Source: Chitinophaga niabensis
GTDB taxonomy: Bacteria > Bacteroidota > Bacteroidia > Chitinophagales > Chitinophagaceae
Length of the DNA: 64,000 bases
Direction: 5' to 3'
Assembly (NCBI GenBank): GCA_017849435.1
Contig: JAFIGY010000002.1
Span: 496,001-560,000 of the forward strand
A model generated the notes under the pieces. It saw only the letters and a program-made list of their open reading frames with translations, was not told the DNA's origin and made no database searches. Shown piece after piece: positions 5,257 to 9,800 of the stretch (its first letter is position 1; each line of letters opens with the position of its first letter). Position numbers and translations under genes: made by a program.

Positions 5257-5289
5257 GTAAAAAGGAAGCCGCCCGGTTGTACGGACGGC
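5257..5289 (-). terminator. Terminator after the double-glycine peptide genes
   Basis: Minus strand 8-bp GC stem with one G-U pair (arms 5268-5275 and 5282-5289), then TTCCTTTTT. It ends the transcript of the two peptide genes. Confidence 0.65.
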
Positions 5290-5332
5290 CCCTTTGTTTG
5301 AAAACCCTCTTAAAATTTAGCAGCGAAAAAGA

Positions 5333-5578
5333 TCATAATCCTCCCAGTATCTTGCCGAGGCCCAGGGTGCTGAGCAGGCTGTTCACGATGTTGGAAACGG
5401 GGGTGAGGAGGTTACCAAGGCCCGTGCTGCCGAGAAGGCCGGTCAGCAGGTTTGTTACGGGGCTCAGGATGTTGCCGAGGCCACCGGTACCGGGCAGATC
5501 AAGACCGCCATTTACTTCTTTTGCAGTTACGGCATCCAGTTCCTGGCATCCGTAATTGTGTGCTTGCAAGTTTTCCAT
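5333..5578 (-). CDS. Double-glycine leader peptide 1 (bacteriocin/RiPP-like precursor)
   Basis: 81-residue precursor-like peptide. Residues 1-25 (MENLQAHNYGCQELDAVTAK, then EVNGG) look like a double-glycine leader of the type cleaved by C39 peptidase ABC exporters. The predicted core (26-81) is hydrophobic and glycine-rich, built of two adjacent 20-residue units (34-53 and 54-73) with shared pattern LGN(I/L)L(S/T)PV(T/S)N, plus a partial third ending GKILGGL. The ATG at 5578 is chosen because it aligns with the second peptide's start; the frame is open further upstream without a leader-like sequence. It lies downstream of its paralogue on the same strand and is followed by a terminator. Activity, export and processing are inference; no transporter or modification enzyme is present in the window. 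Confidence 0.75.
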   Translation of the reverse strand: MENLQAHNYGCQELDAVTAKEVNGGLDLPGTGGLGNILSPVTNLLTGLLGSTGLGNLLTPVSNIVNSLLSTLGLGKILGGL

Positions 5579-5783
5579 GATGGTATGTTTTTTTGTGAGT
5601 GAAGTGTTGTGATGATGGATCAACAAAAGGGTAATTGATCTGTGATCAGGTACTTCAGGGGTATATGGGAAGATTGGAGGACAAATCAATGGAGGACTGA
5701 CCGGAAAGCAGGATGACGGAGGAGAACTTTGTGGTATTCGCACCGTGGGGTACTTTGGGTCAGTCCCCTGATAATAAAAGGTT

Positions 5784-6068
5784 TTACAGGCCAGGCACTA
5801 TACCGCCGAGGCTGCCCAGCAGGCTGTTCAGCAGGTTAGTGACGGGGGTCAGTAAGCCACCGAGTCCGCCGAGACCGGGCAAACCGCCGCCGGTGCCGGG
5901 AACGCCGGGAATACTGGAGAGCAGTGCATTGGTATCCAGTTGTCCGCCTACAGTGATCTTGCCATTTGTGTTAGTAATGCCGAGGGTGAAGAATCCTCCG
6001 TTGACATCTTTTGCAACGGTTGCGTCTATTTCCTGGCAACCAAAGTGCTGAACTTGCAAGTTTTCCAT
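5784..6068 (-). CDS. Double-glycine leader peptide 2 (bacteriocin/RiPP-like precursor)
   Basis: 94-residue paralogue of the next peptide downstream. The leader (1-25, MENLQVQHFGCQEIDATVAK then DVNGG) differs from the first at about nine positions and keeps the Cys11, Gln12, Glu13, Asp15 and NGG positions. The core differs: a polar stretch (26-50) and a Gly/Pro segment (54-67) precede one copy of the 20-residue hydrophobic unit (69-88, LGGLLTPVTNLLNSLLGSLG). Start chosen at MENLQ as for the paralogue. It faces away from the histidine kinase across a 458-base gap. Likely co-transcribed with peptide 1; no terminator is visible between them. Confidence 0.75.
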   Translation of the reverse strand: MENLQVQHFGCQEIDATVAKDVNGGFFTLGITNTNGKITVGGQLDTNALLSSIPGVPGTGGGLPGLGGLGGLLTPVTNLLNSLLGSLGGIVPGL

Positions 6069-6526
6069 ATGATAGGATGTTTGGTTAAAAAGCATCTTGA
6101 GGGTCACCGTTCTTTCCTGGCCGGTGGGATGATCCGGCCACAACTATCCAATATCACGAGTAAATTTTCAGGAAAAGGGCCATACATATTTTGAATGCAT
6201 GGGTGGAGACTTCCGTGATCATTTTTCTATGACGGATGTAAGTTACGGTGGGGCTGTCGAAAGACAATTATTCATTTTATTCATTTTCAGGGCGCATAAG
6301 AGGGCTTGTTCATTTTCTGAACAGCTTATCGTTAGCAAGTAATTAACAAAATAATTCAGGAATAGCCGTGATATTGAATTTTGTAGGCCGTATCGTGAAA
6401 TTCAGCGAAATTACAGGCTGAACAAGGGGCAGCGGGATCATCAGGGGTTCAATTCCGACCCTGTTTCCGCGACCGCGCAATACCCCTCATTCACCAATCG
6501 TTAATAAAAGCCTGATACAATAAACC
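6069..6526. other. Divergent intergenic region between peptide genes and histidine kinase
   Basis: 458 bases carrying the start regions of both divergent units. Only degenerate -7 candidates are visible: minus TAGTTGTG at 6139-6146 and plus GAATTTTG near 6370. A short stem (CAGGG...CCCTG) around 6442-6463 sits in the kinase leader. No ORF is supported. Confidence 0.4.
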
Positions 6527-8464
6527 ATGACAACAAGCCCCTCTCTCCATGTACGGTCTACACCACCATACAAGACGTTTTTATACCTGTTGTTCCCGCT
6601 TGTTATCCTTTCTTACACCGGCTTTTCACAGCAGCACCTCGTTGAAAGCCTCAAGACATCATTGGGTACGGCAAAAGACAGTACGCAGTATGCCGACCGG
6701 CTGAACCGGATCAGCGCGCTGTCCCTCACCCAGCATCTGGACTCCTGTTACCGTTACGCCGCCGCCGCCCAGGAACTCTCCGAGCGGATCCGTTATCATA
6801 AAGGTCTCGCCGATGCCTACATGAACCTCGGGGCTTATTTTACTTTTCAGAACAATGGCCGGTTGGCGCACCGTTTTTACCTTGAGGGTTTGCAACGGTA
6901 CAGGAACCTCGGAGATTCCGCCGGGATCTGTCAGGCCCTTTACTGTATCGGCGGATACTATCATTACCAGGGGCGTACCGGGCTCGCCATTCCTTATATG
7001 AACGATGCAATGGCCATTGGCAGCCGGTTATGGAGGGATTCCGCCTGGGCGCCTATGCTCGCCAATTACTATATGGTGTTTGCGGAAGACAGTTTGCGGC
7101 AGGACTCTGCACGTTGGGCGCTGCATAAAGCGCGGGACATCGCCACCCGTTATCACGACGACCGCATGATCACCTATACCGGGCTTTTCCTGGCGCATGA
7201 AAGGTTCAGGAACGGGGAGTTGTCAGAGGCCATGCAGGAGCTTCGGGATCTGGCGGCCGGAGCTATGAACAGAGGGCTGACCTATCTTGCCGTGTATGCG
7301 TATGCGCAGCTGGACATCTACGCATCCTATGCCCGGTTGCCGGACTCTGTCGACTACCGGAAAAAGATGCTCGAAGCAGCGGTGCATGGAGGATATAAAA
7401 GGTTGATGGTGCGGCCGGTCACCACGTTATATGAATACTATAAACGGAAAGATCCCGCTGAAGCCATGCCTTATGCGGATATCATGTGCGAGATCGCCCG
7501 TCATCAGGAAGATATGCGGATGCAGGGGGAGCGGAATTATATGGAAACATTTTTGCAGGACCAGGAATTGAAAGCGCTTCGCCTTCATAACGCCCTGCAG
7601 GAACAGACCATCGCTACAGACCTGCTGGAGAACAGCAACAGGAAACTGCTCATCATCTTCCTTGGAGCCGGTAGTTTACTGCTGGCCGGTTTACTGCTCG
7701 GCTATTACCGGTTGTATTATAATTCCCGGAAGAAAACCCGGAAACTGAAAGAGTTCAACCGGCTGATGTCAGAAAAGAACCGGCAGTTGCAGCATCACGA
7801 TGATTTCAAGAACAAATTGCTCAGCATACTGGCGCACGATTTTCGCCTGCCGCTCAGTCATATCATTAACGTAACGGAACTTTTCAAGCAGAAAGACATA
7901 CAGGCCGGTCAGTTCCGGGAGATCGCGTTCAGCATCGCCAGTATGGCCAATGAAACCCTGCAGCTGTTCGAGACGGTGCTTCAGTGGATCAAATCACAGT
8001 TATCCGGGTTTGAGTACAAACCACAGCCTTATGTGCTGCGTGACCTGTGGAATGAAGCACAGGAACCGCTGTTCACGGACATCCGGGACAAGGCCCTGCA
8101 GATCGAGCTGCATATCCCGAATGGTTTAACCGTGACTGCCGATAAGGAAATGTTGCAGTTCGTTAACCGGAACCTGCTGCACAATGCCGTTAAATATTCA
8201 TTGCGGGGGGGGCGTATCATGATCGATGCTTCCCGCGATAAAGATCGTGTATACGTAACAGTTACCAATGAAGGAAGCGGAATATCTGCGAATGTTATTC
8301 CCTATATCTTTGACTACAAGGCGCCGGGGGCTTTCTCCCAGGATTCCGCCAGGGGTGCGGGTTTGGCTCTGATCATCTGTAAGGATTTCATGGAAAAGAT
8401 GAAAGGGTCGATCTCTGTGAAGAGCGATGGGCATACCTATACCACATTTGAATATGTCATTTGA
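6527..8464 (+). CDS. Orphan TPR sensor histidine kinase
   Basis: Two-component sensor kinase of 645 residues. A hydrophobic N-terminus (about 17-33) acts as signal or anchor. An extracytoplasmic helical TPR-type region follows (about 40-340) with ALYCIGGYYHYQGR-like repeats, then one transmembrane helix (about 374-396) and a coiled-coil linker. The HisKA domain has phosphoacceptor His437 in ILAHDFRLPLSH. The HATPase domain has N box NRNLLHNAVKYS and G2 box RGAGLAL. The G1 box reads NEGSGI, with Asn581 where Asp is usual; this variant also occurs in active kinases. No response regulator is adjacent, so the partner is elsewhere. Divergent from the peptide genes. Confidence 0.9.
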   Translation: MTTSPSLHVRSTPPYKTFLYLLFPLVILSYTGFSQQHLVESLKTSLGTAKDSTQYADRLNRISALSLTQHLDSCYRYAAAAQELSERIRYHKGLADAYMNLGAYFTFQNNGRLAHRFYLEGLQRYRNLGDSAGICQALYCIGGYYHYQGRTGLAIPYMNDAMAIGSRLWRDSAWAPMLANYYMVFAEDSLRQDSARWALHKARDIATRYHDDRMITYTGLFLAHERFRNGELSEAMQELRDLAAGAMNRGLTYLAVYAYAQLDIYASYARLPDSVDYRKKMLEAAVHGGYKRLMVRPVTTLYEYYKRKDPAEAMPYADIMCEIARHQEDMRMQGERNYMETFLQDQELKALRLHNALQEQTIATDLLENSNRKLLIIFLGAGSLLLAGLLLGYYRLYYNSRKKTRKLKEFNRLMSEKNRQLQHHDDFKNKLLSILAHDFRLPLSHIINVTELFKQKDIQAGQFREIAFSIASMANETLQLFETVLQWIKSQLSGFEYKPQPYVLRDLWNEAQEPLFTDIRDKALQIELHIPNGLTVTADKEMLQFVNRNLLHNAVKYSLRGGRIMIDASRDKDRVYVTVTNEGSGISANVIPYIFDYKAPGAFSQDSARGAGLALIICKDFMEKMKGSISVKSDGHTYTTFEYVI

Positions 8465-9290
8465 GCGAGGTATTAATACCTCTTGCCAGAATGAATAAAA
8501 TGAATGAACGTTTATTCTCTCAGCCATCCTATATTGCAACCGTATTATTTGTTTAACCCAGGAGCAGCGCGGAATCGTACGCTTCTTCAAAAACGACACT
8601 ATGAAAAAAGTAAGATCTGCCACATTGCAACATGTTTGTTCGCCCAATGTTTCCTGCATTGTTCATGCGCCTACCCATCTTCAGCCTTTAAAAGGATTGA
8701 GTCGCTTATTGGTGAGTTTATCGCGGTACTATGATAAGAGTGGTCCTGCAGGGCCGCCGGTTCCGGGAACGGCTGCGTAAGAAGGGGTCGGAATATTCTT
8801 GACCGGTATATGCATTGTCGCTGCAATGCTCCCTTCTCCTGGCCGGGAGTCAGGATTAACAGCATCGGTTCGCCTGCATTGAATGGTAGGGGAGGCGAGC
8901 GATTTGCCTGGGGGCGCTGGGGGGAGGGGCCGGTCATGTCTTTACATTTTATCTTCTTCATAACCGACCGGGATGAGAGGCCTTACGAGAGGGCTTGCTG
9001 ATGCTGGGTGGCCGGCTGGTGAATTACATCCTGATCACGGGTACGGGCATTCGTGTGCATGGTGCCAGCTCCTGATGGATGCGATAAAACAACGCGGTAC
9101 CTCGTACTATATTGACATCCGGTACAACAATACCGCGGCCGGCCATCCGCCATTGGCATGCCAGTCGTACTTCCGGCTTCCGGCTGTGCACTCTGCGCTG
9201 TGGATTGCCTGATGTATCACTGTGCCACTATTTACGTCCTTTCAGTCAATTTCAACCAGTTTTCAATCAGGGTATCAACAAAATATTTCC
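8465..9290. other. Gene-poor stretch of about 820 bases
   Basis: Between the histidine kinase and the transposase-like gene. Apart from one weak 59-codon ORF at 8601, both strands show only short frames without family resemblance. It could be decayed DNA. Confidence 0.4.
8601..8780 (+). CDS. Possible small hypothetical protein
   Basis: 59-codon frame starting ATGAAAAAAG, product MKKVRSATLQHVCSPNVSCI and onward, ending in a Gly/Pro-rich tail. I do not recognise it. The only support is a typical start and the absence of a better gene here; there is no clear promoter, signal peptide or terminator. It may be chance. Confidence 0.22.
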   Translation: MKKVRSATLQHVCSPNVSCIVHAPTHLQPLKGLSRLLVSLSRYYDKSGPAGPPVPGTAA

Positions 9291-9800
9291 ATGATGGAAT
9301 TGCTTACTGTCTGTTGCCGGAATGGGAGAATGTTGTTGCGGGAAGATGATCATAAGCAGATCGTGATGAACAGCCTGCTGTTTATGGTGAACGATCAACG
9401 GATATGGCTATATGGTTTCGTTATTCTGCCGGATGAATTGCATTTGCTGTGGAAGAAGCGGCCGGACTGGGAACATCGGAATGTCAAACAGATGATGCTC
9501 AAGTACACAGCACAGCAGTTCAAACGATCCCTGCGGATCCTGTGGCCGAAAGAGCTGGAGTGCTACAGGAGTGAGCTGAGGGACAGGGAGTTTCAGTTCT
9601 GGGAGCAATCGGCCTACATCACAAAGATCAAAACAGGTGCCGAAGCGGAAGAGGTATTGGAACAACTGCATGAAGTGCCTGTTTCATCCGGACTTTGTAA
9701 TAACGTCAACGACTATCCTTTTTCATCGTCGTCATTCTATCATAACGGGCATGATCCTCATAAAGTACTCACACACTATTACCAATACTTTCCACCGTAA
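9291..9800 (+). CDS. Degenerate REP-associated (Y1/IS200-like) transposase relative
   Basis: 169 residues with the layout of Bacteroidota REP-associated tyrosine transposases: an N-terminal strand/helix region, IWLYGFVILPDELHLLW, WEHRNVKQMMLKYTAQQFK, REFQFWEQ, and a C-terminal NDYPFSSSSFYHNG block. Family members usually have an HUH motif in MPNH(I/V)HL; here it reads LPDELHLL, so the first histidine is lost. The usual LDYIHxNPV block with the probable catalytic Tyr reads LEQLHEVPV, so Tyr appears replaced by Gln. It is therefore probably catalytically dead, either domesticated or decaying, although the frame is intact. The ATG at 9291 is preferred to an upstream GTG because it aligns with the family start. 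A 10-bp-arm palindrome follows 38 bases after the stop. Confidence 0.7.
   Translation: MMELLTVCCRNGRMLLREDDHKQIVMNSLLFMVNDQRIWLYGFVILPDELHLLWKKRPDWEHRNVKQMMLKYTAQQFKRSLRILWPKELECYRSELRDREFQFWEQSAYITKIKTGAEAEEVLEQLHEVPVSSGLCNNVNDYPFSSSSFYHNGHDPHKVLTHYYQYFPP

What the first reader, a model, noticed from the sequence alone, without database searches (positions are those of the whole stretch)
5333..6068. Two tandem double-glycine peptides whose cores share a 20-residue hydrophobic repeat
Seen: both ORFs start with a closely matching 25-residue leader ending in NGG, but their cores differ in length and order. Peptide 1 has two adjacent 20-residue units and peptide 2 has one, with pattern LGxLL(T/S)PV(T/S)NLLxxLL and conserved glycines. 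Known: such leaders mark substrates of C39-type ABC exporters (bacteriocins, RiPPs, pheromones). Inference: a secreted, membrane-active or self-assembling peptide family diversifying by repeat shuffling. No exporter or modifying enzyme is in the window, so export would be in trans.
Basis: partly seen in the sequence, partly recalled or inferred. Interest (0 to 1): 0.75.

Follow-up and report, generated by a model that had tools for sequence, protein, structure and literature searches.

The report
Secreted-peptide genes far from their exporter
These are two real genes for small, greasy peptides of the bacterium Chitinophaga that are probably trimmed and exported by one dedicated pump encoded elsewhere in its genome; the family has no name yet, is well conserved, and usually sits beside a sensor gene that may respond to it.

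Summary
Two minus-strand genes (pepA, pepB) encode precursors with similar 25-residue leaders ending NGG and cores built on a 20-residue unit (one in pepA, two in pepB). pepA occurs in 22 of 79 genomes of its genus, Chitinophaga, under purifying selection in leader and core. The home genome has a third, distant member (pepC) and one C39 exporter, with a HlyD-like partner, on another contig. Exporter homologues occur in all 22 carriers (in G046 the close copy is in pieces) and in 10 of 57 non-carriers; in those 10, other double-glycine precursors lie beside it. Leader profiles hit none of the 47 genomes without the exporter. Export in trans is well supported but unproven. Function is open: a membrane-active, bacteriocin-like peptide is likeliest, yet neutral charge, conservation, a fixed chromosomal site and no evident immunity gene speak against it. 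A TPR-type histidine kinase is divergently transcribed beside pepA in 19 of 22 carriers, so signalling is a real alternative. 'Repeat shuffling' is weakly supported: unit number varies only in pepB.

The parts
5784..6068 (-). pepA: 94-aa double-glycine precursor, first gene of the pair
   Evidence: ORF; homologues in 22 of 79 genus genomes; dN/dS median 0.15 over 110 of 210 pairs
5994..6068 (-). pepA leader, 25 residues ending NGG
   Evidence: sequence; profile hits
5805..5864 (-). 20-residue unit of pepA (LGGLLTPVTNLLNSLLGSLG)
   Evidence: coordinates computed from the ORF
5333..5578 (-). pepB: 81-aa double-glycine precursor, second gene of the pair
   Evidence: ORF; leader profile E 4e-17; a second precursor follows pepA in 13 of 22 carriers (coordinates)
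5504..5578 (-). pepB leader, 25 residues ending NGG
5420..5479 (-). first 20-residue unit of pepB (LGNILSPVTNLLTGLLGSTG)
   Evidence: coordinates computed from the ORF
5360..5419 (-). second 20-residue unit of pepB (LGNLLTPVSNIVNSLLSTLG)
   Evidence: coordinates computed from the ORF
5265..5292 (-). terminator-like hairpin with T-rich tail about 40 nt after pepB
   Evidence: 4 terminator-like sites in the region against a shuffled mean of 1.2; no test of function
6069..6091 (-). stretch TTTTTAACCAAA...TCCTATCAT before the pepA start codon, well kept among relatives; role unknown
   Evidence: alignment of 16 carriers; exact core once in the window, but with 1 mismatch 3 matches against 1.75 expected
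6527..8464 (+). divergently transcribed histidine kinase with TPR-like N-terminal part; candidate partner, not shown to be part of the system
   Evidence: HATPase_c above cut-off; HisKA and TPR_12 significant by E-value but below cut-off; beside pepA in 19 of 22 carriers

Best explanation
pepA and pepB (with the distant pepC) are precursors of small secreted hydrophobic peptides. The leader docks on the C39 peptidase of the genome's single peptidase-containing ABC exporter (PCAT, with a HlyD-like partner, on contig C12), is cut after NGG, and the neutral, cysteine-free, Gly/Leu-rich core is exported by that type I system. In this clade of Chitinophaga the precursor genes lie away from the exporter; in other species of the genus, precursors lie beside its homologue. 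Shown: the genes, their conservation and purifying selection, the single C39 exporter, homologous exporters beside double-glycine precursors, and the co-occurrence. Inferred: cleavage, export, and the function, for which I put membrane-active bacteriocin-like peptide at about 0.4, surface-active or matrix peptide at about 0.3 and signal at about 0.2. The confidence below is for the export part.
For: Only one C39 domain in a genome rated 99.96% complete; nine carriers have exactly one. The exporter passes NCBIfam TIGR01193, peptide cleavage/export ABC transporter, and aligns over its length with PCAT1 4ry2, E 1.6e-170, the DCGAAC, HFVVIY and DPG segments being matched (that these hold the catalytic residues is recalled). 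Homologues at E<=1e-170 are in 32 of 79 genomes: 22 of 22 carriers and 10 of 57 non-carriers; G046's close copy is in pieces. In 10 of 10 of those non-carriers double-glycine precursors lie beside the exporter (two of them, G010 and G032, only by a loose pattern and by eye). Leader profile A2, made from carrier leaders only, hits 22 of 32 exporter genomes and 0 of 47 others. Leader residues fit PCAT binding positions: GG 26 of 26, L/I at -12 26 of 26, I/V/T at -4 26 of 26, A/L/M/V at -7 23 of 26, in a chosen set of 26 carrier leaders (positions from PMC7018657, passages).
Against: No peptide or cleavage data. In 0 of 22 carriers does a leader hit lie near the exporter (coordinates, draft assemblies included). 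Position -15, where PCATs bind a hydrophobic residue, is Cys in 26 of 26 carrier leaders but F/L/I in 16 of 18 exporter-linked leaders. Co-occurrence was not corrected for kinship. No outer-membrane partner was looked for. Against a toxin: net charge 0 for both window cores, dN/dS low in the core, fixed chromosomal site, no evident immunity gene.
Confidence: 0.78

Rival explanations
1. Peptide signal and sensor: the exported core, or part of it, is sensed by the TPR-like part of the divergently transcribed histidine kinase, which then controls the peptide genes or a wider response, in the manner of ComC and ComD of streptococci.
For: Kinase beside pepA, divergently transcribed, in 19 of 22 carriers, even where the kinase is only 33-35% identical (G005, G049). 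Kinases beside peptides lie on one side of a well-supported branch, 18 against 14 rows. In 14 of 14 non-carrier xthA loci examined (of 57) neither peptide nor kinase was present in about 1.5 kb upstream. Leader and core are conserved.
Against: 3 of 22 carriers (G022, G046, G071) keep pepA without a match to the kinase at E<=1e-50. Adjacency may be inherited gene order: xthA and other neighbours are conserved too. No response regulator was seen beside the kinase (by eye). Cores of 56-69 residues are long for a pheromone (recalled). The kinase tree has long branches that meet.
Confidence: 0.2
2. Surface-active or matrix peptide: the exported Gly/Leu-rich cores assemble on the cell surface or in biofilm and have no killing or signalling role.
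For: Neutral, hydrophobic cores (GRAVY 0.68 and 0.86, 21-26% Gly, no Cys), repeated units, purifying selection, no evident immunity gene. GG peptides have been linked to biofilm formation elsewhere (PMC7018657, one passage).
Against: No assembly data; structure predictions of pepA are poor (mean pLDDT 57 and 53). Some exporter-linked relatives touch class II bacteriocin models weakly.
Confidence: 0.3
3. The leaders are not used for export: the peptides act inside the cell or in the membrane of the producer, and the exporter serves other cargo.
For: No carrier has a leader hit near the exporter, and position -15 differs from the exporter-linked leaders.
Against: The leader is kept (G-16, C-15 and GG in 26 of 26 counted); profiles A2 and A3 hit 0 of 47 genomes lacking the exporter; in nine carriers no other C39 domain exists.
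Confidence: 0.12

Closest known systems
Double-glycine peptides of peptidase-containing ABC transporters, including orphan GG peptides (PMC7018657, passages)
   Same: GG at the cleavage site, hydrophobic residues at -12 and -4 (mostly -7), a PCAT in the genome; GG peptides without a nearby PCAT are known and called orphan there.
   Different: Invariant Gly-Cys at -16/-15 in the carriers; exporter paired with its candidate cargo here only through homologous, linked loci in other species; a kinase neighbour.
Bacteroidetocins (PMC6671954, passages)
   Same: Bacteroidota double-glycine peptides cut and exported by a C39 ABC transporter; no evident immunity gene.
   Different: Those have 15-16 residue leaders, at least two Cys, and transporter and TM protein in the same region; here leaders are 25 residues, cores have no Cys and the exporter is elsewhere.
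Class IIb bacteriocins, lactobin A/cerein 7B family (TIGR03949)
   Same: Hydrophobic Gly-rich cores behind GG leaders; exporter-linked peptides of G008 and G024 touch the model (E 6e-4 and 0.0097, both below cut-off).
   Different: pepA and pepB match no NCBIfam model at E<=10.
RiPP clusters with PCATs in Bacteroidales (PMC10352776, passages)
   Same: GG-motif precursors with PCATs in Bacteroidota; two clusters there lack a PCAT.
   Different: Those clusters are defined with modifying enzymes; none was seen beside pepA/pepB.

Membership tests
Double-glycine (PCAT substrate) peptides | Gly-Gly (or GA/GS) at the leader end | tested here: met
   GG in 26 of 26 carrier leaders counted
Double-glycine (PCAT substrate) peptides | Hydrophobic residues at -4, -7, -12, -15 | tested here: inconclusive
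   -12 L/I 26 of 26; -4 I/V 22 and T 4 of 26; -7 A/L/M/V 23 of 26; -15 Cys 26 of 26
Double-glycine (PCAT substrate) peptides | A C39-containing ABC exporter in the genome | tested here: met
   one, on contig C12
Double-glycine (PCAT substrate) peptides | Cleavage after GG and export | not testable with these tools
   needs biochemistry
Bacteroidetocins | Leader of 15-16 residues | tested here: not met
   25 residues in pepA and pepB (definition)
Bacteroidetocins | At least two Cys in the peptide | tested here: not met
   no Cys in the cores; one Cys, in the leader
[quoted passage not shown]
   exporter on another contig
Class IIb bacteriocin, lactobin A/cerein 7B | Match to TIGR03949 above its cut-off | tested here: not met
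   pepA and pepB no NCBIfam match at E<=10
Class IIb bacteriocin, lactobin A/cerein 7B | Two complementary peptides | tested here: inconclusive
   a second precursor follows pepA in 13 of 22 carriers; joint action untested
RiPP with modified core | Modifying enzyme beside the precursor | tested here: not met
   neighbouring ORFs read by eye; in trans modification not tested
GG pheromone with histidine kinase receptor (ComC-ComD type) | Kinase gene beside the precursor | tested here: met
   19 of 22 carriers
GG pheromone with histidine kinase receptor (ComC-ComD type) | Adjacent response regulator and ComD-like sensor (features recalled) | tested here: not met
   no regulator seen beside the kinase (by eye); N-terminal part TPR-like (below cut-off)
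GG pheromone with histidine kinase receptor (ComC-ComD type) | Peptide activates the kinase | not testable with these tools
   needs experiment

The most novel reading that the evidence does not exclude
A secreted-peptide communication system of Bacteroidota: several dispersed double-glycine peptides leave the cell through one shared PCAT, the pepA/pepB products are read by the divergently encoded TPR-type sensor kinase, and the invariant Gly-Cys of the leader marks cargo of this clade's exporter.
Probability: 0.17. Interest if true: 0.8.

Novelty: new variant of a known kind. Interest (0 to 1): 0.45.

Why it matters
It adds an unnamed, conserved secreted-peptide family in Bacteroidota, pairs orphan precursors with a probable exporter by homology and co-occurrence, and gives a compact test case (one exporter, three known candidate substrates in a 5.0 Mb genome) for how PCATs choose distant cargo. 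Mining that looks for precursor and exporter side by side could miss such genes.

Tried and rejected
Chance ORFs: rejected, because homologues exist in 22 of 79 genomes and dN/dS is low.

Mobile or phage origin: no tblastn match of pepA in the plasmid or phage collection at E<=0.01; gene order around it is conserved in the 13 carrier regions laid out.

Wider spread: leader profile A2 hit 5 of 394 genomes of the family, all in this genus (1 of 101 genera); full-length profile A4 hit 6 of 396 of the order, all in this genus (1 of 164 genera). The broader leader profile A3 was run only within the genus.

Promoter of Bacteroidota type (consensus recalled) before pepA: 1 of 21 carriers at up to 1 mismatch, shuffled mean 1.04, so nothing. 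Structure of pepA: poor, mean pLDDT 57 alone and 53 with 3 rows; no fold search made. No PDB sequence relative of the peptides at E<=1. No PADLOC match at E<=1 for the three peptides; the one Pfam row for pepB (DUF6987) is far below cut-off. pepC touches a lactococcin G-beta model at E 0.069, far below cut-off.

Strict leader pattern: hit 6 of 6 non-carrier exporter loci, 0 of 5 carrier exporter loci, 0 of 28 non-carrier control loci, and also 0 of 13 pepA loci, since it does not fit their leaders. It was written after seeing the first set, so it is a description and not a test. The looser pattern also matched inside other genes; those rows were dropped by eye.

Exporter columns that differ between carriers and others (28 of 31 exporters given were parsed, G022, G071 and G078 dropped, G046 not given) follow kinship and prove nothing.

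dN/dS: own Nei-Gojobori script, 21 of 22 pepA genes (G064, frame split, left out), 110 of 210 pairs kept by a saturation filter; median 0.15 whole, 0.13 leader (108 pairs), 0.16 core; maxima 0.59, 0.61 and 0.77; none above 1.

Papers: nine searches of the held open-access library. No listing showed a paper on this family; nothing wider is claimed. Passages only were seen of PMC6671954, PMC10352776, PMC12648078, PMC7018657 and PMC6363468; the rest were listings.

Full report
Observation. pepA (6068-5784) comes first and pepB (5578-5333) second, with a terminator-like hairpin about 40 nt after pepB. The leaders share 17 of 25 residues; the 20-residue unit occurs once in pepA and twice in pepB, and shuffled cores reached the observed scores in 0 of 2000 trials. 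In DNA the units are 42-45 of 60 identical and the leaders 53 of 75, so these are not recent copies. Names of neighbouring genes (xthA, DUF4286-like, metH, rnhA) are recalled from their sequences and come from no call.

Family. Of 79 genomes of the same genus, 22 have pepA. Two loci from a named collection are titled Chitinophaga (L098 C. chungangae, L099 a record called C. pinensis), and the L098 contig has the same length as G007:C7. A second precursor follows pepA in 13 of 22 carriers (coordinates). pepC lies alone elsewhere in G000 (L005), and counterparts were found in 18 of 22 carriers including G000, two of them divergent (G005, G049) and one with an altered frame (G064). pepA and pepB share a C-terminal block around NLLNSLLGGLG; the pepC core is different. 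pepA and pepB have no NCBIfam match, no Pfam match above cut-off and no PADLOC match.

Selection. Over 110 of 210 pairs of 21 pepA genes the median dN/dS is 0.13 in the leader and 0.16 in the core; the largest values are 0.61 and 0.77 and none exceeds 1. The core, not only the leader, is held by selection, which is not what one expects of a fast-changing toxin.

Exporter. The home genome has one C39 domain, in a 723-aa C39-ABC protein with a HlyD-like gene directly upstream. It passes TIGR01193 (527.6 against 523.85 bits) and aligns over its length with PCAT1. C39 domains as such are common: 78 of 79 genomes have one or more, so their mere presence says little; but nine carriers have exactly one. 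Close homologues of this exporter (E<=1e-170) are in 32 of 79 genomes: 21 carriers at 73-100% identity, G046 (listed hit 60%; the closer copy, 70-80% identical, is in pieces), and 10 of 57 non-carriers at 62-78%.

The telling comparison is with those 10. Beside the exporter lie other double-glycine hydrophobic precursors: G024, G038, G043, G065, G075, G078, G008 and G061, G010 and G032 (loose pattern and eye only; profile A3 missed both). In the eight with profile hits, one hit lies within about 2.1 kb of the exporter (coordinates). In 0 of 22 carriers does a hit lie near it, and eight carrier exporter regions read (G000, G005, G006, G007, G022, G025, G046, G049) showed no such precursor (by eye).

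Co-occurrence. Profile A2, from carrier leaders only, hits 22 of 32 exporter genomes and 0 of 47 others (Fisher 3e-12). Profile A3 includes leaders found beside exporters and is partly circular; it hits 30 of 32 and 0 of 47 (Fisher 9e-20). These tests ignore kinship.

Leader anatomy. PCATs bind residues at -4, -7, -12 and -15 (PMC7018657, passages; -4, -7 and -12 in PMC6363468, passages). In a chosen set of 26 carrier leaders -12 and -4 fit and -7 mostly fits, but -16/-15 is Gly-Cys in 26 of 26, where 16 of 18 exporter-linked leaders have F, L or I at -15. Whether this tunes recognition is untested.

Neighbourhood. pepA lies beside a divergently transcribed TPR-like histidine kinase in 19 of 22 carriers; G022, G046 and G071 have no match to the kinase at E<=1e-50. 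xthA lies on the other side in the 13 carrier regions laid out. In 14 non-carrier xthA loci examined (of 57), a metH-like frame lies upstream and neither peptide nor kinase was found in the 1.5 kb held. Kinases beside peptides form one side of a branch, with long branches as a caveat. This fits functional linkage and also plain inheritance of gene order.

Function. The window cores are neutral, cysteine-free and Gly/Leu-rich. Two exporter-linked relatives touch class II bacteriocin models, below cut-off. I judge membrane-active bacteriocin-like peptide likeliest, with surface or matrix peptide and signal as serious rivals; nothing here decides among them.

Verdict. A real, unnamed family of double-glycine peptides, found so far only in this genus, with a probable exporter in trans: a new variant of a known kind. 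The linkage to a sensor kinase is the part most worth an experiment.

Noticed in passing
window 6069-6091 (-): A stretch TTTTTAACCAAA...TCCTATCAT just before the pepA start codon is well kept among 16 aligned carriers; with one mismatch its core is no rarer in the window than expected.
   Followed up: partly
L005 1378-1593 (-): pepC, a third double-glycine precursor of the home genome with a different, mildly lactococcin-like core (model E 0.069, below cut-off); counterparts in 18 of 22 carriers counting G000.
   Followed up: partly
L216 (G008) and L228 (G032): Double-glycine precursors beside the exporter with many LLGG steps in the core, reminiscent of the C-terminal block of pepA.
   Followed up: no
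L007 6702-8873 (-) and its homologues: A short segment of the exporter peptidase (RQLAATDSKGTN in G000, RQYAGTDKKGTN or similar in most non-carriers) differs between the two groups; it may go with the changed leader position -15 or only with kinship.
   Followed up: partly
window 9222-9800 (+): An ORF that looks like a REP-associated tyrosine transposase (name recalled) follows the kinase; relatives of it lie nearby in most of the 13 carrier regions laid out.
   Followed up: no
G056 C1:292200-293300 (L106): Two tandem double-glycine precursors, one of pepC type and one with an unrelated acidic core.
   Followed up: no
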